A DNA stretch of 64,000 nt, taken from the NCBI GenBank assembly GCA_000619965.1, contig JHVD01000013.1:1-64000 (forward strand). The letters run 5' to 3'. The translations under genes were made by a program, and so were the position numbers. Position 1 is the stretch's first letter. Every line of letters begins with the position of its first letter. Of the stretch, positions 3,873-17,429 are shown piece by piece. The notes under the pieces were generated by a model. That model searched no databases, was not told where the DNA came from, and was given only the letters and a program-made list of their open reading frames with translations. This stretch comes from Propionibacteriaceae bacterium P6A17. GTDB lineage: Bacteria; Actinomycetota; Actinomycetes; Propionibacteriales; Propionibacteriaceae.

Positions 3873-4851
3873 TCCGGTCGATGCATTGGTGCGCCTGCAG
3901 ATCTCCGCAGACGACATGTTCGGTGATCACTGGGAAACCCGGTCTTTCGGAGGTGGCCCGCACGCAGCTCTCGAGGCTGCGGGCACGGAACATGTCCGAA
4001 GCTCCCTGTCTCTTGGACGAACCTTCCTGGAAGATCTCAACGACCACGGCGTGCATGGTGCCCGCGTCAACTTGAAGGACGTCGCGGGGCACATGGAGAT
4101 GGCCGACTTGGGCCGCGAGGACACTCAGCTTCCACCGATCTTCGAGCCTCTCGGGGGTGTCGCCCTCTCGTGTGCCCTCAACGACTCCGCCGATCCGCTC
4201 GATACCCGCCGAGGTGTCCCGACGGATGGGAGGGACCAGTTGGAGAATCGCGCCCAGCCAGCAGAATCGCCTGTCGTCACGCTGCCGAGCGAATTCCATG
4301 GACTGGGGACCCTTGGAGCCGCGGACCCGTGGGCAGCACGGGATTGCCGGGAAGACTCGGACGGCGCCATCCGTGACCGGGCCACGGGACACCGCAAGAT
4401 CGAGGTGAAGTCCACGACGACGAGAGGGCGGAACCCGATCCAGCCCCATCTCATGGGCCAGCTGGCTCCAGTATCGGCCGACTCGCACCCACTTCTCGCG
4501 GACCGACATCGGCCCGACATGCCACCCTCTTCGCTGGACGACCGCATTCGCCCACCGATCGGCGGACTTCACAAGCTGCGGCTTACCGCACGCATGACGG
4601 GATTGGGCCATGTCCACGGCGGAGGCCCCAGAGAGGACGCTCGGTGTCGCCCAGTGGGCCATGGAGTCGGGCGCGTCGTCGAAGCCCTCCTCGGACTTCT
4701 CGGACGCCACCCATCGCAAGTCCGGCCCACTCCCATCGACGACATGCGGCATTTGCTGATCCGGATGGGGATTGCCGAGTTCAATCGGCCCACCTTCGGC
4801 CGAGCAGTCGCTGGAATGGTTGGGAGAGCTGGATGCCTCGGACTAATTTGA
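3862..4851 (+). CDS. Probable PD-(D/E)XK nuclease-like protein of the Z1/GHKL system
   Basis: The frame gives 329 residues. Its ATG overlaps the end of the Z1 gene by 11 bases, and its stop lies 16 bases inside the next gene, which is the tight packing expected of an operon. A PD-(D/E)XK-like core is visible around residue 180: GHRKIEVKSTTTRGR carries the E-x-K pair, followed by GQLAP, which resembles the region after the active site in the DUF4420-type PD-(D/E)XK proteins usually encoded beside Z1 and MORC-like genes. The role would be DNA cleavage. Caution: outside this core the sequence is rich in Pro, His, Arg and Gly with few hydrophobic blocks, and an antisense frame has equally good codon-position GC. 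The gene may be very divergent or may hide compensating frameshifts. Confidence 0.55.
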   Translation: MAGDPVDALVRLQISADDMFGDHWETRSFGGGPHAALEAAGTEHVRSSLSLGRTFLEDLNDHGVHGARVNLKDVAGHMEMADLGREDTQLPPIFEPLGGVALSCALNDSADPLDTRRGVPTDGRDQLENRAQPAESPVVTLPSEFHGLGTLGAADPWAARDCREDSDGAIRDRATGHRKIEVKSTTTRGRNPIQPHLMGQLAPVSADSHPLLADRHRPDMPPSSLDDRIRPPIGGLHKLRLTARMTGLGHVHGGGPREDARCRPVGHGVGRVVEALLGLLGRHPSQVRPTPIDDMRHLLIRMGIAEFNRPTFGRAVAGMVGRAGCLGLI

Positions 4852-6992
4852 CGGAGGCCGTCCGCCCCGTTGCCAAGCACCATTACGGTGCACGGCTCAC
4901 GGAGGAGTCGGTTCTGGCGGCGTACATCCGGGCCCAGGGAGCGTGGCCCACCAAACAGGCCCTCTCCTCGGGGCTGTCGAGGTTGGCCGACGGGATCGAC
5001 TTCGAACAGGTGGCCATCGGCTTGGTCGAAAACGGTCTGGCACCGGTGCGAATCCCGACCCAAAGCGGAGCACCCGCACCGAGAGAACCAGCGGCTCCCC
5101 GTCGGGCGGCGCCGGCATCCGCGCCGAGGCTCGACCCAGACACTCCGCCCAAGGCCACCCCTCACGAAGCCGAGACCCTCGAATGGTTCCCCAAACCCAA
5201 TGCGTTGGGAGACCTCAATGGCGAAGGTGCCGTGAAGATGCTCGGCACGCCCAACGTTCCACTCTCGACGGTGCTCGTTCGGGAGACGGCCCAGAACAGC
5301 TGGGACGCCCGACTGGGCAACAAGCCGATCGACTACGAGGTCCACCTCAGAACGCTGTCGGACACGGAGGCGCAGGTCCTCGAGACGAGGGTGTTCACGG
5401 GGGAGGCCACGAAACTGGGGCTCCGGGAGGCGCTTCGCCGCCGCCCCCTACGTGTGCTGGAGATTTCCGACCGTGGCACGACTGGCCTTGATGGACCGAT
5501 TCGTGCAGACTTGGAGATCGGCCCCGGCATGTCCCGAAACTTCGTGGATCTGATCTTCAACATCGGAGCCCCTCGTGACGTCCATCTGGGGGCTGGGACC
5601 TACGGGTTCGGCAAGACGATCACCTACCGCGTCTCGAATCCGCGCACCGTCCTCTTCTGGTCACGTACCCGCGTGGACCACTCACTCCAACACCGCCTCA
5701 TCGGATCAGCGTTCGGCCCCTCATTCTCAGCCGGTGGGGTGGTGTACACAGGCCGACATTGGTGGGGGCAGATCACGGAGGATGGGACACGGGTCGAACC
5801 GTGGATTGGCCACCGTGCCCAAGAGATGGCCGAGGACGTCTTCGCCGCGAGGTTCCATGGAACGGACACGGGTACGACCCTTCTCGTCGTCGATCCGGAA
5901 CTCGGTGGTCATGACGACCATGAGGATCTGCAGCGTCTCTCCGACGCCATCATCTGGAACCTGTGGCCCAAGTTGTTGACGACACCCACGGGCAGCAAGC
6001 CAATGAACATCCGGCTGCTCCACAATGGTCACCCCGTCGACTTGCCCGACGTCAACGAGCATCCGCAGCTCCAAGGTTTCGCGGAAGCACTCCAGATGGT
6101 GCGCGCCCAACAGGGGCGTACCACCTTCGCCCCCCGATTCGATACCAAGGTCGAGGAAATCTGGCTGGAGCGTCCCCGCGTCTTGGTGGGCCACTTGGGT
6201 CTGTGCCGATTCCCGCGCATGGGCGGGACGAACGCAGCGGACAGCGAGACTCGTCCCATCCAGGGCCCTACGGGGCACGTGGCTTGGATGCGACACGATG
6301 CCGAGCTCATCGTTCGTTACGACGAACGTCAGAAGATCGAATCCGACTACGTCCAGTGGGCGGCGGTATTCCGGCCCATGGCAGCCGTGGACGACAGTTT
6401 CGCCCAATCAGAGCCACCGGCACATGACGATTGGGTTCCCGCGTCGATCTCGAACTCCACTCGAAAGCGGCACGTGAATGTCGGAATTCGACGCGTGCGC
6501 GAGAAGGTGCAGGAGTGGTTGCGCCCAACGGCAGGCCAGACCTCATCCGCAACCTCGCGAGTGTCCGTGGCTGCGCTGGCGGACAAACTCGCTGCGCTCA
6601 CGGGAGCCATACCCGGGTTCCGGTCCACACGGCGAAACTCGGGAGCGAAGACGGGAGCCACTCGGACGGGCCGAGCGCGCCCCAAAGTGGACGTGCTCCG
6701 TCATGAAGTCGGCAGGATCGACGACGGATGGCGAACCACCAAGATCTTGGTGAAGGCTGGCGAAAAGGGGCCCCGAACCGAGGTCCACGCCAAGTGTGAA
6801 GTGGCCACCGATGGCAAGCCCTTGGCGGATGAATCATTCCTTCGCATCCTCGGCTGGGCAGCCGGCGAGGACCAGGAGCCGGACGGCAGCGCCAGCGCTG
6901 TATTGGCGCCCGGCCAGACGGCTTGGCTCGTTGTTGAGACGCAAACCGCAGTCACGCTGCAGGTAACCCTCTCTGCCGAGGAGGAAGACTGA
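4833..6992 (+). CDS. MORC/MutL-like GHKL ATPase of a predicted restriction system
   Basis: From ATG 4833, which follows GGGAGAG, the product has 719 residues; an upstream extension in frame is rejected because it covers the preceding gene and reads as low-complexity Arg/Pro. The GHKL ATP-binding motifs are complete: N-box RETAQNSWDAR (150-160), G1 ISDRGTTGLDG (211-221) and the G2 lid GAGTYGFGKT (253-262). The N-terminal 75 residues look like a small helical domain, followed by a Pro/Ala linker. The middle and C-terminal parts contain the transducer and family-specific regions. Bacterial paraMORC proteins of this kind are predicted to act as ATP-gated DNA clamps or loaders in restriction-like systems with Z1 helicases and nucleases. 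The next ATG shares one base with this gene's TGA. Confidence 0.85.
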   Translation: MPRTNLTEAVRPVAKHHYGARLTEESVLAAYIRAQGAWPTKQALSSGLSRLADGIDFEQVAIGLVENGLAPVRIPTQSGAPAPREPAAPRRAAPASAPRLDPDTPPKATPHEAETLEWFPKPNALGDLNGEGAVKMLGTPNVPLSTVLVRETAQNSWDARLGNKPIDYEVHLRTLSDTEAQVLETRVFTGEATKLGLREALRRRPLRVLEISDRGTTGLDGPIRADLEIGPGMSRNFVDLIFNIGAPRDVHLGAGTYGFGKTITYRVSNPRTVLFWSRTRVDHSLQHRLIGSAFGPSFSAGGVVYTGRHWWGQITEDGTRVEPWIGHRAQEMAEDVFAARFHGTDTGTTLLVVDPELGGHDDHEDLQRLSDAIIWNLWPKLLTTPTGSKPMNIRLLHNGHPVDLPDVNEHPQLQGFAEALQMVRAQQGRTTFAPRFDTKVEEIWLERPRVLVGHLGLCRFPRMGGTNAADSETRPIQGPTGHVAWMRHDAELIVRYDERQKIESDYVQWAAVFRPMAAVDDSFAQSEPPAHDDWVPASISNSTRKRHVNVGIRRVREKVQEWLRPTAGQTSSATSRVSVAALADKLAALTGAIPGFRSTRRNSGAKTGATRTGRARPKVDVLRHEVGRIDDGWRTTKILVKAGEKGPRTEVHAKCEVATDGKPLADESFLRILGWAAGEDQEPDGSASAVLAPGQTAWLVVETQTAVTLQVTLSAEEED

Positions 6993-7885
6993 TGGTCCAA
7001 TTTCGGATTCCTCCGCATCGCCAAGCCTCAACCGGAAGTGTCCAGTGGGGCGCATGGTGGTACGTCGTAAACGGGCAGCGACACCTCGCGGAAGGACTCG
7101 TCGAAGGCTGGGATTACTCGACCCCGATCACCTTCGAGGTACAGCCGAGCGTGGATGAGGATCGATTCCTCGAGTCAACCGGGTTGCCCTCCGTGAGGGT
7201 CGCGGATTTCGTCGCCATTGTCGAATGCCCTTCCACCGGCATCCGTCACATCTCACGAATCGGCCTCGCCCAACTGTTCTCCGAAGCCACCAAGTCATTG
7301 TGTCTCGCGCCAGACCCAGCCACCTTGTCAGGCTCGATCCTGCTCTCGGCAAGCGTCGTGCTCAACAGGGATCTTCCAAGTGCTATTGCGACCGTGGCCT
7401 CCCGGGCAGGAGCCCGCTTGGCTTCCTCTGGAAGCACCAGACTCCTGCTCGAGGGAGACGGAGCGCGCTTCCCGACCGAGGCTGTCGATTTCAAGGAACT
7501 GGGGTATGAACCAGCGCCTTGGTCCGTGGAATGTGATTTCTCTGACCCCCATGAGATGTTCCTAGGGTCCGTGAGGTTGATGGTCAACACCAAGCACCCC
7601 TCTGCCGAAACCCTGTTGGGTGATGGAACACCCAACGCAGCCTTGGTTCAGTCGGTCCTGCGCACGGACATTCTCCGGCAGCTGTTCGCGGCGGCCTCCG
7701 ACGTGATGGACGAATTCCGAACCTCGGAGTTCTCGGCAGGCTCATTGGGGTATGCGCTGGAGAATCTCTCCGACCTCTACTTCGGTCGCTCGGCCTACGA
7801 GACCCTTCGCCTTCGCCAGATGGATGCCCAGCAGTTCGAGCTTCTCCTCATGTCCCGAACCCAGATGCTCGAGGAGACAGTGTGA
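6992..7885 (+). CDS. Uncharacterised protein of the Z1/GHKL operon
   Basis: The 297-residue protein overlaps the GHKL gene by one base and the following gene by four (GTGA), so translation is probably coupled. I do not recognise a family. It is soluble, with no signal peptide or membrane helix. The first 140 residues contain beta-rich stretches (SVQWGAWWYVVNGQRHLAEGL; VRVADFVAIVECPSTGIRHI), and the last 80 residues are helical and acidic, ending ELLLMSRTQMLEETV. Its fixed place between the GHKL ATPase and the DUF6339-like gene suggests an accessory or specificity subunit of the same complex. That role is inferred from position only. Confidence 0.75.
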   Translation: MVQFRIPPHRQASTGSVQWGAWWYVVNGQRHLAEGLVEGWDYSTPITFEVQPSVDEDRFLESTGLPSVRVADFVAIVECPSTGIRHISRIGLAQLFSEATKSLCLAPDPATLSGSILLSASVVLNRDLPSAIATVASRAGARLASSGSTRLLLEGDGARFPTEAVDFKELGYEPAPWSVECDFSDPHEMFLGSVRLMVNTKHPSAETLLGDGTPNAALVQSVLRTDILRQLFAAASDVMDEFRTSEFSAGSLGYALENLSDLYFGRSAYETLRLRQMDAQQFELLLMSRTQMLEETV

Positions 7886-9048
7886 CCCCGCTACGTGCCT
7901 TTCCCCGACTCTCCCGAGGAGAGACGCTGCTCGTCCGGGAACACATGCTGCGGCAAGCCGCGGACAGCCCCCGCCGCATGTCCGATTTGGCGGGCGTCAC
8001 ACACCCGAAAGCCTCAGGCATCCCGACGGGCGCCCACGTGGCCAATCCCGAAGAGATTGCTGCGGTGCGAAAGGATGTCATGCAGGATCTCTCTGCATGG
8101 CCCACGGATCGCCCGGTGCAACGTCAGCACACTGCGGAATTCGACCGCGACTTGGGACAGGCATTGGCCCGGCACCTCAGGATCCTGCCTGCCGACGCCG
8201 GACACGAGGAGACTTGGAGCTTCCTGGCTGCCATCGTGTTTCCAGATCTGACATGGATGCGGTACCCGGACCTCCACAAGGACCGGGTGTTGGGAGTCCG
8301 CCATCGCAATGTGCTTCGTCGTGCTTGGTTCCGCCAAACCATCCTCGGAGACCTGCAGTTCACCGAGGCCGGCCCCTTGGGCGAGGACGAGCTGGTGAAT
8401 CTGTTCGAACGGCCTTCCCTCTCGATGAACGTCACCCTCCTGCGGACCTTGGCCCGATTGGTCCTGGCATACGACGGCCCCGATCGAAGTGAGTACGCGC
8501 GGAGCCTCACTCGCCGCGCCGTCATGCTGACAGGCACCTTCCTCCTCGACGGGTTGACGGAGAGTCAGCTTCTGGAGCACTTGGCACCAGACCCACACAC
8601 ACTGGAAACCATGCTCACTGCCCACGGGATGGTGCCACATCCTTTGCCATCCAGCGCCACCGCGACGAGCCCGAGGGACGGATCTCGGCCCCCGAGTGCA
8701 GACCAAATTCCCGAGCGCTTGACCGCCCCTCGGGGGAAGCCAAGCGACCTCGTGGCCCGCTTCCACCGTCACATGCTCCGGCTCACGGAGGAGGTGGCTT
8801 CGATTGCGCCTCAAGCGGGCAGGGTGCTGCATTTCCTGGTGAATCGCGACGGCGGACTCAAGACTGCTCGAGCTTGGGCTGCCCCCGACAGCGAGCATGC
8901 CCTGCTCGATGTGTTGCAGAAAGCCAAGCGCTTGGACCTCTCGATCGAGGCCTTGGTGATCCAGCCCGTCTACCGGCCACTTTTCTCCGAGGAGTTCCTC
9001 GAAGCAGCAACGGAACGCCTGAGGAAGGCGTCGCGTCGATCCGAGTGA
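7882..9048 (+). CDS. DUF6339-like protein of the Z1/GHKL operon
   Basis: The protein has 388 residues and starts with GTG overlapping the previous stop. It matches my recollection of DUF6339: RLSRGETLLVREH near the N-terminus, THPKASGIPTGAHVANPE (about 44-61), then a tryptophan-rich middle with FLAAIVFPDLTWMRYPD, DRVLGVRHRNVLRRAWFRQ and LGEDELVNLFERPSLS. The family has no known biochemical function but is found with this type of restriction-linked operon. Residues from about 265 to 295 look like a flexible linker, followed by a helical C-terminal domain. No nuclease or nucleotide-binding motif is visible. It is probably a structural or DNA-contacting subunit. Confidence 0.75.
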   Translation: MTPLRAFPRLSRGETLLVREHMLRQAADSPRRMSDLAGVTHPKASGIPTGAHVANPEEIAAVRKDVMQDLSAWPTDRPVQRQHTAEFDRDLGQALARHLRILPADAGHEETWSFLAAIVFPDLTWMRYPDLHKDRVLGVRHRNVLRRAWFRQTILGDLQFTEAGPLGEDELVNLFERPSLSMNVTLLRTLARLVLAYDGPDRSEYARSLTRRAVMLTGTFLLDGLTESQLLEHLAPDPHTLETMLTAHGMVPHPLPSSATATSPRDGSRPPSADQIPERLTAPRGKPSDLVARFHRHMLRLTEEVASIAPQAGRVLHFLVNRDGGLKTARAWAAPDSEHALLDVLQKAKRLDLSIEALVIQPVYRPLFSEEFLEAATERLRKASRRSE

Positions 9049-9051
9049 CAC

Positions 9052-9468
9052 ATGCGGGGGGGCGTGAGCGATCGGATGTCCCGGACCCGGAGACGTGACA
9101 CTACTCCGGAGATGGCCGTCCGACGTCTGCTGCACGCAGCCGGCTACCGCTACCGCGTCGACCACCGTCCGATCCCGACGCTCCGCCGTACGGGCGACAT
9201 CGTGTTTCCAAGGAAGAAACTCGTCGTGCTCATTGACGGTTGCTTCTGGCATGGTTGTCCCGAGCACTTCGTGATCCCCAAGACCCGTACCGAGTGGTGG
9301 CTCGCCAAGATTGGCGCCAACCAACGTCGCGATCTGGAAACCGAGCGACTCTGGACCGACGCGGGCTGGAACGTCCTACGCTTTTGGGAACACGAAGATC
9401 CCCAATGCGTAGCCGCTGTGGTGGCGCAGGCGCTCGATTCTCCGACTCAAAAGAGAGTTGCCGGTTGA
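9052..9468 (+). CDS. vsr: Very short patch repair (Vsr) endonuclease
   Basis: The 138-residue product has the Vsr signature: MSRTRRRDTTPEMAVRRLLH, then GDIVFPRKKLVVLIDGCFWH with the catalytic Asp region, the CFWHGCPEH zinc/active-site motif, and W-N-V-L-R-F-W-E-H near the end. Vsr nicks 5' to the T of T:G mismatches produced when 5-methylcytosine deaminates, so it repairs damage caused by the adjacent C5 methyltransferase. ATG 9052 lies three bases after the previous stop, which fits operon coupling; ATG 9076 would begin at the usual family start and is an alternative. The last 22 bases overlap the 3' end of the convergent methyltransferase gene. Confidence 0.93.
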   Translation: MRGGVSDRMSRTRRRDTTPEMAVRRLLHAAGYRYRVDHRPIPTLRRTGDIVFPRKKLVVLIDGCFWHGCPEHFVIPKTRTEWWLAKIGANQRRDLETERLWTDAGWNVLRFWEHEDPQCVAAVVAQALDSPTQKRVAG

Positions 9469-10688
9469 GCCACCGAAGATACGTAGGGGGACATCAACTT
9501 CGCGATCTCTGCAACGACGGGCACGACGATCGAGTTGCCGAACTGCTTGTAGGCCTGGGAGTCGGACACCGGGATGCGGAAGTCATCTGGGAATCCCATG
9601 ATGCGAGCGCACTCTCTGGGCGTGAGTCGCCGTGGATTCTCTCCCTCACCCCTTGACACCAGGATCTCTGAGCCGTCCTTGTAGTACCGGGCAGACAGGG
9701 TGCGGGCAACGCTGTCGGGGCCGACCAAGCCGAAGCCGAACCCATTTCCTGCAGCTTGGTGCTTTCGGGCATAGGCCTGCAGATAATTCCACAGGTGATC
9801 CGTCAGGACGTACTTGTCGTTGACCGCTCCCGATTCTCCGAGCGTGAAGTGGCCCTCTGCGGCTTCGGAGCCGTCTTCCGGGTGAAGTACATCCCTCATC
9901 ACCGGAGCGTCCCGCGGAATCTGCAGATCGTCGAAGTCGAACTCATGCCTGACATCGTCGCGGAAGCCCACGATGAAGATCCTTCGCCGACCTTGTGGCA
10001 CCCAAGGAGATGCGTCGATCACGCGGTAGTGGGTGTCGTAGTGCAGTTCCTCGGACAGGGTCCTGAGAATCGTCTCGAACGTCCTACCTCGGTCGTGTGA
10101 CTGCAGGTTCTTGACGTTCTCCAGCATGAACGCCTTTGGCTTCTTCTCATCGATGATCCTTGCCACGTCGAAGAAGAGCGTGCCTTGGGTCTCATCCGCA
10201 AAGCCGTGAGGCCTTCCGAGGGAGTTCTTCTTCGAGACGCCCGCGATCGAAAACGGCTGGCAGGGGAAACCGCCGACGAGCACATCATGATCCGGAACGT
10301 CCGCCGCATCCACTTCGGTGATGTCTCCAACGAGAGGGTGCTCGGCAGACGCCCCGAAGTTGGCGATGTACGTCTGCTGCGAGTACTTGTTCCACTCGGA
10401 GGTGAAGATGCACTCACCACCTGCCTGCTCGAACCCCAGCCGGGTTCCCCCGATGCCCGCAAAGAGATCGATGAAGGTGAACGAGGCGCCCTCTCTCCTT
10501 GCATGCTCCAGCTCTGACGAGAGAGTCTGCCTCTGGGCATGGCTCATGTGTGTTTCGCCGGAGAGCCAACGTCGAACCGTACGCTCGCTCACGTGCACTC
10601 GCCTTGCGATCTGCGCAGGAGACAGGTACTGGGAGATCTCGACCAACAGCGTGGTGCCGTCGGCACGAGAGGACTTCTTTTCGAACAC
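9447..10688 (-). CDS. DNA (cytosine-5-)-methyltransferase with N-terminal helix-turn-helix
   Basis: The protein has 413 residues and starts with GTG 10688 behind GGGAAGG. Residues 20-60 form an XRE-like helix-turn-helix (LSPAQIARRVHVSERTVRRW). The C5 methyltransferase domain follows: FIDLFAGIGG (72-81, AdoMet), GGFPCQPFS (139-147, catalytic Cys143), ENVKNL (190-195), QGRRR (232-236) and QFGNSI near the end. The layout matches SsoII/Ecl18kI-type methyltransferases that modify CCNGG or CCWGG-like sites and repress their own gene through the N-terminal domain. A perfect inverted repeat of the right type lies 25 bases upstream. It should protect host DNA from the MvaI-like enzyme encoded upstream on the same strand; the target sequence is inferred, not seen. 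Confidence 0.93.
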   Translation of the reverse strand: MFEKKSSRADGTTLLVEISQYLSPAQIARRVHVSERTVRRWLSGETHMSHAQRQTLSSELEHARREGASFTFIDLFAGIGGTRLGFEQAGGECIFTSEWNKYSQQTYIANFGASAEHPLVGDITEVDAADVPDHDVLVGGFPCQPFSIAGVSKKNSLGRPHGFADETQGTLFFDVARIIDEKKPKAFMLENVKNLQSHDRGRTFETILRTLSEELHYDTHYRVIDASPWVPQGRRRIFIVGFRDDVRHEFDFDDLQIPRDAPVMRDVLHPEDGSEAAEGHFTLGESGAVNDKYVLTDHLWNYLQAYARKHQAAGNGFGFGLVGPDSVARTLSARYYKDGSEILVSRGEGENPRRLTPRECARIMGFPDDFRIPVSDSQAYKQFGNSIVVPVVAEIAKLMSPYVSSVAQPATLF

Positions 10689-10712
10689 TTGATGCCTTCC
10701 CGCGGGGACTTT

Positions 10713-10733
10713 TCCCGGACATTCTGTCCGGGA
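10713..10733 (-). promoter_or_regulatory. Candidate methyltransferase operator (inverted repeat)
   Basis: TCCCGGAC and GTCCGGGA form perfect 8-bp arms around a 5-base centre, ending 25 bases before the methyltransferase start codon. The core GGACA-N3-TGTCC closely resembles the regulatory site that, as I recall it, the helix-turn-helix of M.SsoII binds (GGACA-AAT-TGTCC). Since the methyltransferase here also has an N-terminal helix-turn-helix, autoregulation is the simplest reading. A hairpin terminator for the restriction gene is less likely, because no T-run follows and the upstream stop is about 73 bases away. Confidence 0.6.
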
Positions 10734-10805
10734 TTCTACCTCGCCGCACAGGCTAGGTGATCATACTGACAACAACTGTACGAAGGATCTGCGGTGACGC
10801 TGGGG

Positions 10806-12182
10806 CTACCGCAGCTCGACGTACACGGTCGACTCATACAGGTCGACGAGGTGCTTGGGGGACACCCGAAACTGCGACCTACGGTGGACCCGCCACCGAC
10901 CCCCAACCCACTGCATGTTGACACCCGGATCGTAGTAGACGCGCCGCGCAGCGAAACCGTTCAGGAGCTTGGGGAATCCGGTGGTGTCACACATCAACAC
11001 CGTGGAACCGAATCGGAACTCCTTGGTCGTCCCCTCTCCCCGTGCTTCGTAAGGGACATAGCAGGTGTGGGCATGCTTGCGCTTCCAGTGATTCATGAGC
11101 CCTTCGAATCCCCATTTGGCAGCGAGGATGCCTTCCCTGTCCCGCAGCTCGAGGGCGCCACCGACATCGAAGGCTCCAGCGCCATCCCATCCGTTCAGGG
11201 ACAGGACCGTCCCAAGCTCACCCACCGGCTTGCCGACGAAGTGCCGCCCGGTGAAGTCGACGCGGTCTGGACGATCCTCTCGCCGTCGCCCGTAGCGATG
11301 CATGAAGTCCACCACCCCCGGATCCTTGTAGAACCCGCCCGTCGGTTCAGGCGTCATGAGGGTGAGCGCCGTGCCCGAGCCCGGGTTGTCGAAACTCCGA
11401 ACCTTGTGCGCCTTGAGTTCCCAGCCTTGGAAGTCAGGCTCGCTTCGCCCGTTGGGAGAAACTCCCAGCAGTGACTCCAGGGTGTAGCCTCCCGCGTTCC
11501 GTGCCGTATAGGCGATGGCTTGATCGCCCTCGAGTCGCTGGCTGGGAACCCAGCCCATGTGATGGACATCCGTCAATCGCCGCAGCAGCAGTTCCCTGCC
11601 ATCGAGGTCGTTCTCCGCCTCGAGGTCCCAGATCTGGAAGACCCCAGCACTGCCAACGGCTCGATTCATGATCCCCGCGATCGCCACGGATTCCGGCGGC
11701 AGGAGCAGCGCCCACACCTGTTCGGACTTTCCCGTGATGCCGAGCACCAGACAACGACCTGCCTCCTGACCACGCCGTGCACGGACGTAGAGATTGCGAG
11801 GAGGGTTCGCACTGCCTTGAATGAGCCCGGAGAGGCGCACCTCTGGATATTGCGGGTAGTAGATGAGCTTCGCGTTGGGTGCCGGTGAGTCACCGTCGGG
11901 ACCGATCCAAGCAAATTGAACGGGCAGGGTGAACTTGGTCCTCCCCGGGGCTCCAGGCTTCGTGCTGGCAGTCAAGGATGCTTCGACGTCACCGGAAGGA
12001 ATCTTCGCGACATCGCTCAGGTCGCCGCCGACGTAGATTTGGTTCTTGTCATTGTCCTGGCGCGGGGACAGGCTCTTGATGAGCAACTGCCGACACCCAC
12101 GTCGGGCGAAGAGGGTACGAACCTCAGCAACGCCCAAGCTCGCAAGCCATGCGTCGTACGCCACACCTTCGCTGACGTCCAT
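10806..12182 (-). CDS. MvaI/BcnI-like type II restriction endonuclease with N-terminal extension
   Basis: The 458-residue protein starts at ATG 12182 behind GGGGATGAGGG. The C-terminal half carries the MvaI/BcnI family signature: GGYTLESLLGVSPNGRSEPD then FQGWELKAHK, giving a PD-(D/E)XK site with Asp250, Glu255 and Lys257. MvaI and BcnI are monomeric enzymes of about 240 residues that cut CCWGG and CCSGG. The first 225 residues here are therefore an extra region; it contains beta-rich segments (TKFTLPVQFAWIGPDG, KLIYYPQYPEVRLSGLIQGS) and may be a separate DNA-recognition domain. The neighbouring methyltransferase is C5-type with Vsr, whereas MvaI and BcnI partners are N4-methyltransferases as far as I recall. 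The 117-base gap to the methyltransferase gene holds the latter's own candidate operator. Confidence 0.85.
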   Translation of the reverse strand: MDVSEGVAYDAWLASLGVAEVRTLFARRGCRQLLIKSLSPRQDNDKNQIYVGGDLSDVAKIPSGDVEASLTASTKPGAPGRTKFTLPVQFAWIGPDGDSPAPNAKLIYYPQYPEVRLSGLIQGSANPPRNLYVRARRGQEAGRCLVLGITGKSEQVWALLLPPESVAIAGIMNRAVGSAGVFQIWDLEAENDLDGRELLLRRLTDVHHMGWVPSQRLEGDQAIAYTARNAGGYTLESLLGVSPNGRSEPDFQGWELKAHKVRSFDNPGSGTALTLMTPEPTGGFYKDPGVVDFMHRYGRRREDRPDRVDFTGRHFVGKPVGELGTVLSLNGWDGAGAFDVGGALELRDREGILAAKWGFEGLMNHWKRKHAHTCYVPYEARGEGTTKEFRFGSTVLMCDTTGFPKLLNGFAARRVYYDPGVNMQWVGGRWRVHRRSQFRVSPKHLVDLYESTVYVELR

Positions 12183-12298: not shown

Positions 12299-12838
12299 GT
12301 GCCCAAGGAGTTGAGTCGTGGCTGCGGGAGCGTGCCGTGCGGATGGTTCTGGAACGTCAAACCGCTCAGCGAGGGCCTCGCTCGCACTCGATCCGGGCTG
12401 TGGCCCGATAGCTCGGTGTTGGGGAGGAGACCTTGCATATGCGGTGCAACCCCCAGGGGCTCGAGATCGAGTAGATTCCTGCCGGAGAGGACCTGCGGCA
12501 GGAGACGGAGCGCCTCGCACGCGAACTCGGCGAAGCCCGCCGAGCGGACGGGACCCTCGACGCCGCCTCGGCCCTCTTTTGCAGCGGAACTCGACCGCCC
12601 CAGGACGAGATGATCCGGTGCATCGACGAATACCCTGGTCAGTTCAGGGGTCGAGGTCTTCTGCCGCATCCTCGCTGCGGAATGTGGGTTCCTCACTTCC
12701 CGCGGCTACCGTGTCGCGAAGAGACGACCGCCCGCTGAGGGGGCCATGGAGGGTGAGCTCCTCGTTGCCGAGATCCGTCGGATCCACGCCGAGAGCACCT
12801 CGGTCTTCGGACTACGGAAGACGAATCACCCTGGGATT
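12299..12838 (+). pseudogene. IS3-type element remnant (orfA and start of orfB)
   Basis: Scattered frames read like an IS3-family element. An orfA start region (RERAVRMVLERQ, then HSIRAVAR followed by a stop, then LGVGEETL) is followed by ETERLARELGEARRADGTLDAA. An orfB start, MIRCIDEYPGQF, lies at about 12610, and pieces resembling LLVAEIRRIHAE and SVFGLRK follow near 12760-12820. Stops and frameshifts separate all the pieces, so nothing is functional. The interval 12183-12300 before it shows no gene. Confidence 0.7.
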
Positions 12839-12843
12839 CGTTC

Positions 12844-13290
12844 CTATGGGGTTCCTTGACCGGCGGTTGCCGGCTGGGGTGGTTCTTGGCCAGCATGATG
12901 CGCGGCTTCGACCTCGAGGGGTGTGCGGTAGCCGAGTTCACTGTGGAGGCGGGAGTGGTTCCACCACCACATGTACTCGAGCGTCGCGCGCTCGACCTGC
13001 TCGATGGTCCGCCAGGGGCCGCGGCGGCGGATCAGTTCGGTCTTGTCGAGTCCGTTGATCGCCTCGGCGAGGGCGCTGTCAATGCTGTCGCCCACGGCTC
13101 GGGTCGACGGTTTCGCGCCGATCTTGACGATCCGATCCATGGAGACGACGCAGAGGTAGTTCGAGTCGTGGCCCGCCTCGTGGACGAGCTCGTCCACAAG
13201 GCCGGCGGCGTCGAATGCTGCCATGCTCAGCGCTGACAGCGACAGGCCGTCGGTCTTGGCATGGAATCCGGACGGGTCGGCCGCGGCGCC
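12844..13290 (-). pseudogene. IS3-type orfB (DDE integrase) remnant, opposite orientation
   Basis: On the minus strand the sequence encodes the C-terminal half of an IS3-type transposase: LSALSMAAFDAAGLVDELVH, NYLCVVSMDRIV, GDSIDSALAEAINGLDKTEL, RRRGPWRTIEQVERATLEYM and WWWNHSRLHSELGYRTPLEVE. The last conserved Glu of the DDE set lies in ALAEAINGL. The N-terminal half is missing or unrecognisable, and several conserved positions differ from the usual (for example SID for SYD), consistent with decay. It meets the oppositely oriented IS3 fragment at about 12840. From 13290 to 13504 I see no gene. Confidence 0.75.
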
Positions 13291-13504
13291 ATCAGTGGCG
13301 CCTGCGTCTCGCCAGACGGGCGGGAGATCGCAGTCGCTGATCAACACGCGGGCATCGTCGCGCACGATCGCACCGGCGCGATCCTTCGACGCTCCGAGGA
13401 GCCGAAGGGCCGTTCGCGCAACGCTCCGCTCCCCAAAGGACCGCCACACCTCCGCACGGCCGACGGCGCACCCACCGACGCGCCACGAGCAAGCGACGTG
13501 GGGC

Positions 13505-13562: not shown

Positions 13563-16500
13563 CTAGGCCGTCAGCACGATCTCGAGCCGGCTGACACCCG
13601 TCGAGGGCAGCCCGGGCCGAGGGGACCCGTCGGGCAGCGTACCGGGCTCGTCGATCTCGCCTGGCGCCCCCGTCCCACCGGGCTCGTCGGTGCCACCGGG
13701 CTCGTCGGTGCCACCGGGCTCGTCCGTCCCGTCAGCCTCGTCGGTGCCGCCAGGCTCACCGGCCGGTGCGAGGTCCACGGACAGCAGGTGCATCGGCGAC
13801 GCGACGACACCACCCGAGGTGTTCTCCGCGACGGCGAGCCACGCCACCGGCACGTCGTCCACCTTCGGCAACGCCTCCACCGTCGCGAAGTCGACGCTGA
13901 TCGTCGCCCACTCGCCGGCCTTGGCCTTCGCAACACCCAACACCTCGTCGCTGGCCACGACGACGCCCACCGCGTCCGTCGTCAACGACGTCGTGCGGCT
14001 GCTGAGCTGCAGCGGCACCCGGAACTCGTCGGAGTGCACGTCGTAGCGCTTCTCGACGTCGTACTCCTCCGCCCCGAACTCGCCCAGGAACGGCGAGTAC
14101 GCGTTGATGACGAGCTCGCCGCGGTCGACGTCGAACTGCAACAGGCGGAAGAAGCTCGACCCGAAGCGCAACGACGTGCCCTCGGCGTAGTTGGCGCGCA
14201 AGTCGGCCAACTTCGGGTGCGTCGTCGGGACCTCGTAGAACTGGTAGTCGGCAAGCATTTCGACGACATGGTTGCCCACCTGGCCGGCGTCCTTGCGGAC
14301 GTTCAGGCCCACCCCGTGATGGTGCCCGTTCAGGGTCATCACGACGTTCGGGTTCTGCTCCACGATCCGACGAGCCTGCTCGCGTCCCTCCGCGTTGGAG
14401 TACGGGGCATCACGGCCGTCGGGCTCCGACGAGGTGGTCAGGTAGGCATGCGAGAACAACAGGCCGTTGCGGTCCGGGAACTGCCGGAAGACGCTGTTGG
14501 CCCAATCGATCTCCTCACGGGTCACGCCGTAGGCGAGGTGGACGGCCACGAAGTCGAGCCCGCCCGCGCTGAATAGGTCGTAGTGGTTCTCGTTGTCCCC
14601 CGGCTTCCACGGACCGCCGTACTTCGCATCGGCACGCCACTGCTTGCTGACGCGCTCGTAGCGATCCGGCCCGAAGTGCTCGTTGTACATCGAGCCGTCG
14701 GTGCCGTACTGGTTGTCGTGGTTGCCCGGCAACACACCGTTGGGGATGCCGGAGGCGTCGATGATCTCCTGGATCTTCGAAGCCTCAGCCCACTCGCGTT
14801 GCACCTGCTCCTGCATCGCCGGATCCGCGTGCACCTTCGTGTTGTTCTCGATGATGTCGCCCGTGTGCGCCATGTAGCTGATCTTGCGTTCCTCCGCGTT
14901 GGCCACCACCCAGCGCAGCACGTCCGCGTACGCGTCGCGCCACAACGCCCGCTCCGCATCCGGGTGCAGCTCGGTGTTGTCCGTGCGCCAGTCACCCGCC
15001 GCGCCCTCGGAGAGGTACTGCGTGTCCGTCAAGTGCGCAATGGAGAAGTCGTAGTCGGACGGATCCTGGAAGGCGCCGGTGATGTCCTTGTCGATGTCGT
15101 CGGCGAACGGATCCGTCGCCGCCACCATCACGTTGACCACACCCTCGCCCACATGCTCAGGCCGCGCGACCGCCGCCAGCACCGTCGGCGCGTTCAGCAC
15201 GCCACGCTGCTCCACCAGCTGATCCCATGCACCCTCGACGTGGTCCCACACGAGCAGGTGCGCCAGACGCTGCGGATCCACGTCGCCGCTCCAATGCACC
15301 GTCGGAGCCGCAGTGGCGCCGTCGGGCACCGACACGTCAAACCGCTGCCAGCTCGTGTTCGCCGCAGCCGGGCTGCGATCACCCTCGCCATCGGTGGCCG
15401 ACACCACACCGAGCTGCACCTGGCCGTCGGCCTCCGGGTTGAGCTCCGTCGGAATCGAAACGCTGGTGCCCTCCGAGCCGGCCGTCACACGGCCGGCGGC
15501 GCCGAGGTGGAACGTCGTCTCATACTCGTCCTCCCCGTCCTCCGCGACGGAGGCCCCCAGCTCGACGACGCCCTCCCCCTTCACGGTGGCCGAGGTGGAC
15601 ACCACCCCGCCGGGGATGTCGTCCGAGGTGAAGGTGACCGTGTGCGTCGACGTCTGCCCCAACACATCCTTCGCGACGACGACCAACGCATGGCTGCCCT
15701 GCCGCAGTCCCGCCCCGATCCGGGCGCCCGGCTGCACATTTGCGCCGTCGAGCGTCACGAGCACCGAGCCGTCGTCGACGCCAGAGACATCGTCCAACTC
15801 CACCGCCAACGTCGTCGCGGCACTCAAGTGCGCGCCCTCCGTCGGGGTGCTGCCCGTCAGGCGCGGACCATTGTTGTCGACCACGACGTTGCGCGTCAGC
15901 CGCGCCCCGTCCGCCGACACCGCAGAGACGGTGTGCGCACCGTCGGCCAACGTCGTCGTGTCCAGCACCAGCCTCAGCCCGGGCTCGTCGACACTCACGT
16001 CGAACGAGAACTGCGCCGTCAGCAGCTTCGCCGGCGAGCTGCCACAGTTGCCGTCGCCCATGTCATAACGCGACTGCAACCCCATGCCCGCGACCGTCCC
16101 GCCCGGGAAGTCGAGGCCCACCTTCGACATGACGAAGTCGTCGTGGTTGGTGCCGCACGAACTCTGAATGGTGCCGGTGCGCATCACGATCTCGTTGCGG
16201 CCCGGGCGCAGCCACGCCGCCGGGAACTCCACGCGCACCGTCTCGCTGACGTAGTCGCGGTCCACCAGCGGCAGCTCCTGCCCGTTGACCAGGACCGTGT
16301 TGCCATAGCGCGCCTCCGACGAGTTCGAGCCGATCGCGAACACGAACGCCGCCGTCCCGGCTCCACCCGAAGGCTCACCCGCCGCCGCCTTGCCGTCGAC
16401 CTCATACGACGCCGCTGCCGGCGCCTTCTCGGACACGACGTCGTGCACCAGCACCTCGCCCTGCAGCACCTGCCCGTCGCGGACGTTCAACTGCGGTGCC

Positions 16501-17243
16501 ATCGGATTCCCGTTGTTGACGCGCACGGTGTGACGGGTCACCCCGCCCTGGGCGGTGGTCGCCGCCAGCACATGCTCCCCGTCGGCGAGCGTCGTCGAAT
16601 CGAGCGTCCCGGTCAGGCCCGTGCTGGCCTGCGGATCGTCGCCCACCTTGAAGTGGGCATCGAACTCCTTCAACAGCGTCGTGTTCGAGCCGCACGAGCC
16701 GTCGCCCATGTTGTAGCTGGCCCGGTTGGCGTCGCTGGCCGTCACCGGGCCGCCCGTCACCAACTCGACGTCGAACACCTCGAAGTCGTCGTAGTTCGCA
16801 CCGCAGGAGGTGGTGAACGTGCCGACCTTCAACGTGATCACGTTGTCCCCCTTGACGAGCCACTCGTTCGGCACCTCCAATTCCACGGTCTCGTTGACGT
16901 ACTCGCCCCGGTCCAAGGCGATGCGCTGCTCGGACTTGCCGTTGACAAGCAGGTACGAACCGTACTTGCCCTCGATCGAGTTCGAGCCGACGCCGAAGCG
17001 CAGCGTCGACGTGCCCACGACCTCCGTCGCCGCCAACGGCTCATCGTCGATCGTCAACGCCACCACGCGATCGCCACGTGTCGTCGGAAATGCCTCGACG
17101 GAAGCCTCACCGACGACGAACGCGCCATCGGCGGGGGTGAGAGTGGGGGCCGTACCGGCGGCGCCGGCAGGCAGGGTCACCGCGGTCAAGGCGGTGAGGA
17201 GTCCCACAACGCTCAAGGCGCTGAAGAAACGTTTGGGGGACAT
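13563..17243 (-). CDS. Secreted metallophosphoesterase with duplicated Cys-containing domains and terminal LPSTG
   Basis: From the second ATG (17243), with AAAGGAG five bases before it, the product has 1226 residues. Residues 1-30 are a signal peptide (KRFFSALSVVGLLTALTAV, cleavage after AGA). A duplicated module of about 217 residues follows, marked by SCGANYDDF (about 149) and MGDGSCGS (181), then SCGTNHDDF (366) and MGDGNCGS (399). Ig-like segments lead to a calcineurin-type phosphoesterase domain: HLTDTQ (735), HTGDIIEN (796), GNHDNQYG (839) and GHHHG (976). The C-terminus has a Gly-Thr-Asp-Glu-Pro repeat spacer and then LPSTGVSRLEIVLTA, where the sortase motif is present but the hydrophobic segment and charged tail are absent. 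It probably cleaves phosphomonoesters or phosphodiesters outside the cell; the substrate is unknown. Confidence 0.85.
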   Translation of the reverse strand: MSPKRFFSALSVVGLLTALTAVTLPAGAAGTAPTLTPADGAFVVGEASVEAFPTTRGDRVVALTIDDEPLAATEVVGTSTLRFGVGSNSIEGKYGSYLLVNGKSEQRIALDRGEYVNETVELEVPNEWLVKGDNVITLKVGTFTTSCGANYDDFEVFDVELVTGGPVTASDANRASYNMGDGSCGSNTTLLKEFDAHFKVGDDPQASTGLTGTLDSTTLADGEHVLAATTAQGGVTRHTVRVNNGNPMAPQLNVRDGQVLQGEVLVHDVVSEKAPAAASYEVDGKAAAGEPSGGAGTAAFVFAIGSNSSEARYGNTVLVNGQELPLVDRDYVSETVRVEFPAAWLRPGRNEIVMRTGTIQSSCGTNHDDFVMSKVGLDFPGGTVAGMGLQSRYDMGDGNCGSSPAKLLTAQFSFDVSVDEPGLRLVLDTTTLADGAHTVSAVSADGARLTRNVVVDNNGPRLTGSTPTEGAHLSAATTLAVELDDVSGVDDGSVLVTLDGANVQPGARIGAGLRQGSHALVVVAKDVLGQTSTHTVTFTSDDIPGGVVSTSATVKGEGVVELGASVAEDGEDEYETTFHLGAAGRVTAGSEGTSVSIPTELNPEADGQVQLGVVSATDGEGDRSPAAANTSWQRFDVSVPDGATAAPTVHWSGDVDPQRLAHLLVWDHVEGAWDQLVEQRGVLNAPTVLAAVARPEHVGEGVVNVMVAATDPFADDIDKDITGAFQDPSDYDFSIAHLTDTQYLSEGAAGDWRTDNTELHPDAERALWRDAYADVLRWVVANAEERKISYMAHTGDIIENNTKVHADPAMQEQVQREWAEASKIQEIIDASGIPNGVLPGNHDNQYGTDGSMYNEHFGPDRYERVSKQWRADAKYGGPWKPGDNENHYDLFSAGGLDFVAVHLAYGVTREEIDWANSVFRQFPDRNGLLFSHAYLTTSSEPDGRDAPYSNAEGREQARRIVEQNPNVVMTLNGHHHGVGLNVRKDAGQVGNHVVEMLADYQFYEVPTTHPKLADLRANYAEGTSLRFGSSFFRLLQFDVDRGELVINAYSPFLGEFGAEEYDVEKRYDVHSDEFRVPLQLSSRTTSLTTDAVGVVVASDEVLGVAKAKAGEWATISVDFATVEALPKVDDVPVAWLAVAENTSGGVVASPMHLLSVDLAPAGEPGGTDEADGTDEPGGTDEPGGTDEPGGTGAPGEIDEPGTLPDGSPRPGLPSTGVSRLEIVLTA

Positions 17244-17429
17244 CATGCTCCTTTCGAACTGGCTTGACCAACGAAGACCCAATCACGTCCCAAAATCGCC
17301 CACTAGGCACGTTGTGTGCCAGACGCGCAGAGTTCACGAGATGTTCATGCCCAGCGGGCGCCGGCCGGAGCGCGTGCCGAGCGTGAAGACGATGGCGTTC
17401 GCCGAGCGGTCGCCAGGCATGAAGACGAC

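What the first reader, a model, noticed from the sequence alone, without database searches (positions are those of the whole stretch)
10713..10733. SsoII-like autoregulatory operator upstream of the HTH-methyltransferase
The inverted repeat GGACA-N3-TGTCC with extended GC arms lies 25 bp before the start of a C5 methyltransferase that has an N-terminal helix-turn-helix. The M.SsoII operator, as I recall it, has the same half-sites and spacing. This predicts the same methylate-or-repress switch in an actinobacterium with an MvaI-type nuclease partner.
Basis: partly seen in the sequence, partly recalled or inferred. Interest (0 to 1): 0.6.

Follow-up and report, generated by a model that had tools for sequence, protein, structure and literature searches.

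The report
Methyltransferase's own operator, in two layers
The palindrome is almost certainly the DNA switch by which a bacterial DNA-methylating enzyme turns down its own gene; comparing dozens of relatives suggests it has two layers, an inner one read by the enzyme's DNA-binding head and an outer one probably read by its methylating body.

Summary
In detail: TCCCGGACA-N3-TGTCCGGGA at 10713-10733, 25 bp before the GTG start of an HTH-C5 methyltransferase. Core and spacing match the published SsoII/Ecl18kI regulatory site.

Of 52 non-redundant HTH-type relatives, 33 carry at least 8 of the 10 core bases near the M start (shuffles average 2.8), against 0 of 25 relatives lacking that HTH. The closest relative (68-70% identical) has the identical 13-mer. 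The Ecl18kI residues needed for binding, R35 and R38, are conserved.

The "same switch" claim is only partly supported. The MvaI/BcnI-type nuclease gene lies upstream in tandem, not divergent, and has no site of its own. This predicts M autorepression, as reported for M.EcoRII, rather than reciprocal nuclease activation.

New: an outer GGG...CCC dyad flanks the core (GGG-N9-GGACA-N3-TGTCC-N9-CCC; the window keeps 5 of 6 bases). Relatives with an SsoII-type target-recognition region keep the core but lack CCC. Relatives with an unrelated N-terminal domain but an EcoRII-like methyltransferase keep the outer dyad at another spacing. I infer a composite operator whose outer half-sites, resembling CCWGG, dock the methyltransferase domain. 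Nothing was tested at the bench.

The parts
10713..10733 (.). Perfect inverted repeat TCCCGGACA-TTC-TGTCCGGGA; inner operator core GGACA-N3-TGTCC at 10717-10729 (on the M strand GGACA-GAA-TGTCC)
   Evidence: conserved in HTH-type relatives
10739..10741 (-). Promoter-distal outer element, AGG on the M strand (family consensus GGG at -18..-16 from the operator centre 10723)
   Evidence: 2 of 3 consensus bases
10705..10707 (-). Start-proximal outer element, CCC on the M strand (family consensus CCC at +16..+18)
   Evidence: 3 of 3 consensus bases
10703..10743 (.). Inferred whole composite operator, 41 bp (outer half-sites CCTCG/CCCCG read outward, plus the core)
   Evidence: Inference from the family profile
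10733..10738 (-). TAGAAT, possible -10 hexamer next to the operator; CAGAAT at 10726-10721 inside it is the alternative used by the relatives' layout
   Evidence: consensus match only, no convincing -35
10695..10700 (-). GGAAGG, Shine-Dalgarno-like, 6 nt before the GTG
   Evidence: Sequence
9447..10688 (-). C5 DNA methyltransferase with N-terminal HTH (413 aa); EcoRII/Dcm-like target-recognition region
   Evidence: PF00145 8.7e-87, PF13384 HTH_23 7.5e-6; 3lx6/3me5 about 1e-103; alignment A1
10548..10631 (-). HTH segment (residues about 20-47), with SERTVRRWLSGE carrying the equivalents of Ecl18kI R35 and R38
10806..12182 (-). MvaI/BcnI-family nuclease (458 aa), tandem and upstream of M; PD-(D/E)XK residues D250, E255, K257 conserved
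   Evidence: PF15515 7e-38; R.MvaI by profile 2.9e-8, R.BcnI 0.004; alignment A3
9052..9468 (+). Vsr mismatch endonuclease, convergent with M and overlapping its 3' end
   Evidence: PF03852 8.3e-17; TIGR00632 1.1e-33

Best explanation
The palindrome is the inner part of the methyltransferase's own operator. Two M molecules bind it through their N-terminal HTH domains, one per GGACA/TGTCC half-site, and block the M promoter that overlaps or abuts it. M therefore limits its own synthesis once enough enzyme is present. Because the nuclease gene lies upstream in tandem, the expected effect is autorepression of M, with at most a roadblock to read-through from R, not the reciprocal activation of R known for SsoII. 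In this EcoRII/Dcm-like branch the operator also has an outer dyad (GGG-N31-CCC, fuller form CTGGG...CCCAG), which I infer is gripped by the two methyltransferase domains as near-cognate, mostly non-methylatable CCWGG-like half-sites. Shown by sequence: the palindrome, the gene layout, HTH homology, conservation of inner and outer elements, and their association with different protein domains. Inferred: dimer binding, promoter overlap, repression, and MTase-domain docking. Probability of an autoregulatory operator bound by this M: about 0.9. Probability that the outer dyad is read by the MTase domain: about 0.55.
For: Same half-sites and spacing as the biochemically proven SsoII/Ecl18kI site. 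HTH homology to Ecl18kI with R35/R38 conserved; R35A and R38A abolish binding in Ecl18kI (PMC3695355). Among 52 non-redundant HTH relatives, core score at least 8/10 in 33 (null 2.8), at least 9 in 20 (null 0.2), 10/10 in 7 (null 0); windows further upstream in the same loci give 37, 5 and 0 of 598; 0 of 25 relatives without this HTH reach 8. Closest relative L086 has the identical 13-mer. Outer dyad, not used for anchoring: 4.5 of 6 bases at N9 against about 1 at distant offsets, stable down to 11 MTases under 65% identity. Association with the HTH: R38 goes with TGTCC, Y38 with TGTCA, Fisher 3.5e-5. Association with the target-recognition region: EcoRII-type 30 of 34 sites with a CCC half, SsoII-type 0 of 4 (Fisher 9e-4). 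RHH-type relatives have GGG-N22-CCCAG around an unrelated inner GGTAT. An M.EcoRII-like gene has GGG-N31-CCC with a different inner sequence.
Against: No binding, footprint or transcript data exist for this protein. The core alone is not diagnostic: four other copies in the genome, and CCCGGACA-N3-TGTCCGGG occurs away from any C5 MTase in related genomes. 19 of 52 HTH relatives score under 8. The window's outer dyad is imperfect (AGG instead of GGG). No convincing -35 was found in the window. The domain associations rest on related sequences, with only 4 SsoII-type sites and a closely related RHH group, so the P values overstate independence. Part of the start-proximal CCCAG(AGG) may be selected as ribosome-binding sequence.
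Confidence: 0.87

Rival explanations
1. Full SsoII-type reciprocal switch: M binding represses M and thereby activates the nuclease promoter.
For: Same core and HTH as SsoII. In the closest relative L086 the nuclease (EcoRII type) is divergent with the operator between the genes.
Against: In the window R is tandem, its start is 1.4 kb from the operator, and there is no site at R (best 6/10). Published EcoRII, MspI, ScrFIA and LlaJI MTases repress themselves without affecting R (PMC3978073).
Confidence: 0.1
2. The inverted repeat is a transcription terminator or 3' hairpin of the nuclease mRNA, not an operator.
For: It lies 73-93 nt behind the R stop and folds into a strong 9-bp hairpin (z -2.6).
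Against: No T-run; the terminator scan did not report it. The same core occurs in loci with other upstream genes or a divergent R. Complementarity is lost at two of five arm positions in about 40% of relatives, unlike an RNA stem.
Confidence: 0.04
3. Methylation-sensing promoter of CfrBI type: recognition sites in the palindrome (CCCGG and CCGGG, both CCSGG) are methylated and so tune transcription.
For: Two CCSGG sites lie in the arms; BcnI-type nucleases cut CCSGG (recalled).
Against: The target-recognition region is EcoRII/Dcm-like, predicting CCWGG, and no CCWGG lies in 10600-10900. The nuclease profile matches MvaI better than BcnI. The GC arms are not conserved.
Confidence: 0.05
4. The outer GGG/CCC is not an MTase docking site but a promoter or ribosome-binding element, or a second site for the HTH protein.
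For: The start-proximal CCCAGAGG runs into the ribosome-binding site; TTGACC often abuts the distal GGG.
Against: Exact mirror symmetry about the operator centre; same dyad with another spacing and promoter layout in RHH-type loci; absent from relatives with no N-terminal DNA-binding domain and from SsoII-type loci; unlike the HTH half-site.
Confidence: 0.3
5. The site is the operator of an unrelated host regulator.
For: The core also occurs elsewhere in this and related genomes.
Against: It tracks HTH-type M genes across phyla, plasmids and phages and is absent upstream of relatives without the HTH.
Confidence: 0.03

Closest known systems
SsoII / Ecl18kI regulatory methyltransferases and their 15-bp regulatory site
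   Same: HTH fused to a C5 MTase; GGACA-N3-TGTCC; R35 and R38; site just upstream of M
   Different: EcoRII/Dcm-like instead of SsoII-like target-recognition region; tandem not divergent R; MvaI/BcnI-type nuclease; Vsr present; outer GGG/CCC dyad instead of A/T tracts
M.EcoRII autorepression
   Same: EcoRII-like MTase domain; expected autorepression without effect on R; an EcoRII-like locus (L207) has the same GGG-N31-CCC outer dyad
   Different: HTH reads SRETLNRW and the inner sequence is not GGACA; nuclease convergent and of EcoRII type
MvaI/BcnI R-M systems
   Same: Nuclease family PF15515
   Different: Partner here is a C5 MTase with Vsr; MvaI and BcnI MTases are N4-cytosine enzymes (recalled, not tested)
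C-protein controlled R-M systems
   Same: HTH dimer on a palindrome near the start of its own gene
   Different: Regulator is fused to the methyltransferase; no separate C gene

Membership tests
SsoII-like regulatory methyltransferases | N-terminal HTH domain fused to a C5 MTase, homologous to the M.SsoII regulatory domain | tested here: met
   (HMM built without SsoII-type members hits Ecl18kI at 4e-20)
SsoII-like regulatory methyltransferases | GGACA-N3-TGTCC site close upstream of M | tested here: met
SsoII-like regulatory methyltransferases | R35 and R38 equivalents | tested here: met
   SERTVRRW against GDRTIRRW; need for both from PMC3695355
SsoII-like regulatory methyltransferases | Divergent R and M genes with the site between their promoters | tested here: not met
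   R 12182-10806 and M 10688-9447 both on the - strand
SsoII-like regulatory methyltransferases | SsoII-type (CCNGG) target-recognition region | tested here: not met
   Window resembles EcoRII/Dcm, not Ecl18kI, in this region
SsoII-like regulatory methyltransferases | M binds the site, represses M and stimulates R | not testable with these tools
   Needs EMSA and transcript assays
EcoRII-type autorepressing C5 MTases | EcoRII/Dcm-like MTase domain | tested here: met
   3lx6 and 3me5 about 1e-103; alignment with the M.EcoRII-like L207
EcoRII-type autorepressing C5 MTases | GGG-N31-CCC outer dyad at the M start | tested here: met
   5 of 6 bases in the window; complete in L207
EcoRII-type autorepressing C5 MTases | Autorepression without effect on R | not testable with these tools
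   Tandem layout is compatible; no expression data
MvaI/BcnI restriction endonucleases | PF15515 domain with PD-(D/E)XK residues | tested here: met
   7e-38; D250, E255, K257 invariant
MvaI/BcnI restriction endonucleases | Specificity CCWGG or CCSGG | tested here: inconclusive
   Profile closer to MvaI (2.9e-8) than BcnI (0.004); no residue-level test

The most novel reading that the evidence does not exclude
Self-regulating C5 methyltransferases of the EcoRII/Dcm type use a two-layer operator: an inner palindrome read by an exchangeable N-terminal DNA-binding domain (HTH or ribbon-helix-helix) and an outer pair of CCWGG-like half-sites read by the methyltransferase domain itself. The enzyme's own substrate specificity would then be part of its operator recognition and could tie repression to free, substrate-ready enzyme.
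Probability: 0.5. Interest if true: 0.72.

Novelty: new variant of a known kind. Interest (0 to 1): 0.56.

Why it matters
It extends a regulatory scheme worked out in enterobacterial plasmids to actinobacteria, other phyla and phages, with a nuclease family not previously tied to it in the papers held here. The outer dyad gives a testable answer to how one protein divides itself between methylating and repressing: the published SsoII model has the MTase domain resting on flanking DNA non-specifically, whereas here the flanks look sequence-specific and near-cognate. The association between HTH residue 38 and the half-site base, and between MTase type and the outer half-site, suggests a simple partial recognition code that could predict targets of other self-regulating methyltransferases.

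Tried and rejected
Terminator or RNA-hairpin reading: rejected for lack of a T-run, pairing loss in relatives and the variety of upstream genes. Second operator at the nuclease gene: none above 6/10. Operator-first blast of a consensus 45-mer against plasmids: the hits below E 0.05 were all known M loci used for the consensus; the one followed up outside them (Sinorhizobium, E 8; L133) showed no MTase. Viral-contig scans for the nuclease and the Parvibaculaceae M found nothing. Nuclease search in 396 phylum genomes found only the window's own. Som and Friedman 1994 (EcoRII) and Protsenko 2009 (Ecl18kI) are not held, so the EcoRII footprint could not be compared. SsoII-type loci with RTIRGW recognition helices mostly lack the GGACA core and were left out of the outer-dyad comparison. 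Promoter prediction in the window gave no sigma-70 match. No structure was predicted; HTH homology was already clear by HMM.

Full report
What is there. Window 10713-10733 reads TCCCGGACATTCTGTCCGGGA, a perfect inverted repeat with 9-bp arms and a 3-nt spacer. It lies 25 bp before the GTG start (10688) of a 413-aa protein on the - strand that joins an N-terminal HTH (PF13384, 7.5e-6) to a C5 methyltransferase domain (PF00145, 8.7e-87). Upstream of it, on the same strand, ends a 458-aa MvaI/BcnI-family nuclease (12182-10806; PF15515, 7e-38); downstream and convergent is a Vsr endonuclease (9052-9468). The order along the - strand is therefore R, operator, M, with 117 bp between R and M. The methyltransferase domain is closest to the solved structures 3lx6 and 3me5, labelled cytosine-specific methyltransferase (about 1e-103) and identified by me from memory as Dcm, and its target-recognition region resembles EcoRII/Dcm rather than Ecl18kI. 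CCWGG is therefore the predicted, untested specificity.

Match to the SsoII site. An HMM of the HTH domains built without any SsoII-type member finds the Ecl18kI N-terminus with E 4e-20. The window's SERTVRRW lines up with GDRTIRRW of Ecl18kI; there R35 and R38 are needed for binding and regulation (PMC3695355).

Is it more than chance? The core alone is not rare enough: it occurs five times in the genome, and a longer form occurs in related genomes away from any C5 methyltransferase. The decisive test is comparative. From genome, plasmid and viral collections I took 52 HTH-type relatives under 85% identity. In the 140 nt around the M start, 33 reach at least 8 of 10 core bases, 20 at least 9 and 7 all 10. 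Shuffled sequences give 2.8, 0.2 and 0. Windows further upstream in the same loci give 37, 5 and 0 of 598. None of 25 relatives lacking this HTH reaches 8. The closest relative (68-70% identical) has the identical 13-mer, spacer included.

A second layer. When 37 sites are aligned on the core, conservation reappears at mirror-image positions that were not used for the alignment: GGG at -18 to -16 and CCC at +16 to +18 from the centre. The mean match is 4.5 of 6 bases at this spacing and about 1 at distant offsets. The signal survives thinning to 11 methyltransferases under 65% identity (4.45 against 1.05). The fuller form is CTGGG...CCCAG; a subclass has the outer elements one base closer on each side. 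The window has AGG and CCC, 5 of 6. At the register where the outer site overlaps CCWGG, 15 of 37 start-proximal and 9 of 37 distal pentamers match 4 of 5 bases, against 0-2 at most other registers outside the neighbouring ones, while a complete CCWGG is almost absent there (1 of 37).

Which protein domain goes with which layer? Three comparisons point the same way. First, within HTH-type relatives the last base of the half-site goes with the residue at Ecl18kI position 38: R with TGTCC (17 of 18), Y mostly with TGTCA (Fisher 3.5e-5). Second, sites whose MTase has an SsoII-type target-recognition region keep the GGACA core but have no CCC outer half (0 of 4, against 30 of 34 EcoRII-type sites). 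Third, a Firmicutes group with an unrelated N-terminus, which I read as ribbon-helix-helix from its sequence, but an EcoRII-like MTase domain has GGG-N22-CCCAG around an unrelated inner GGTAT (15 of 25 control loci score at least 8 at that spacing, 2 of 52 HTH loci). An M.EcoRII-like plasmid gene has GGG-N31-CCC with a different HTH and inner sequence. Relatives with an EcoRII-like MTase but no N-terminal DNA-binding domain show neither layer. The inner layer thus goes with the N-terminal domain and the outer with the MTase domain. These comparisons share ancestry and the SsoII-type sample is small, so the P values are optimistic.

Mechanism. For M.SsoII, two molecules bind the site, the HTH domains on the core and the MTase domains on flanking DNA, protecting about 50 bp (PMC6100179). 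The same geometry with sequence-specific flanks would explain the outer dyad. Occupation of the site should exclude RNA polymerase: in relatives the operator centre often resembles a -10 hexamer (17 of 37 have spacer NAA against 3 for the mirror form), and in the window TAGAAT abuts the operator and CAGAAT lies at its centre. No promoter is demonstrated. Repression of M by M is the expected outcome. Reciprocal activation of R, as in SsoII, is not expected because R is tandem and has no site. [quoted passage not shown]

Modularity. The operator-M unit is coupled to different nucleases and layouts: a divergent EcoRII-type nuclease in L086, M-Vsr-MvaI/BcnI operons on rhodobacterial plasmids, M-Vsr-EcoRII in Burkholderia phage KL3, and an HNH nuclease with a weak EcoRII-N match in Thauera. 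The window's R-then-M tandem is one variant.

Verdict. 'The same switch' is only partly supported. The outer dyad, which I found in none of the papers held here, is the novel part and remains an inference until tested.

Noticed in passing
L023-L080 and L106, about 180 nt upstream of the DLFAG motif: Firmicutes C5 MTases with a ribbon-helix-helix-like N-terminus (MKQVHLRVDDELYNEL) have a conserved start-proximal site GGG-N22-CCCAG with inner GGTAT; often the start-proximal half is a true CCAGG methylation site.
   Followed up: partly
window 4644-9048 (+): Three adjacent genes of unknown family end directly before vsr; the first has a weak match to a PADLOC candidate defence protein (PDC-M33A, 9e-10). 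The island may hold a further defence system.
   Followed up: no
window 12844-13449 (-) and about 12300-12800: Remnant of an IS3-like transposase (integrase core rve_3) beside the nuclease gene, suggesting the R-M island was acquired or rearranged.
   Followed up: no
window 13563-17282 (-): Large secreted calcineurin-like phosphoesterase (1239 aa) with an LPSTG-like sequence near its C-terminus.
   Followed up: no
L093, L148-L154, L098 upstream of M: Alphaproteobacterial members share TGTTCTTG roughly 25-30 bp before the operator centre, probably a -35 element or another regulator's site.
   Followed up: no
L096:4270-5271: Thauera nuclease partner combines a weak EcoRII-N match with an HNH domain, an unusual nuclease exchange beside the same operator-M-Vsr unit.
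   Followed up: no
L214-L217 (related genomes): CCCGGACA-N3-TGTCCGGG with spacers GTT/AAC recurs in one genus away from C5 MTases, apparently the operator of another regulator.
   Followed up: no
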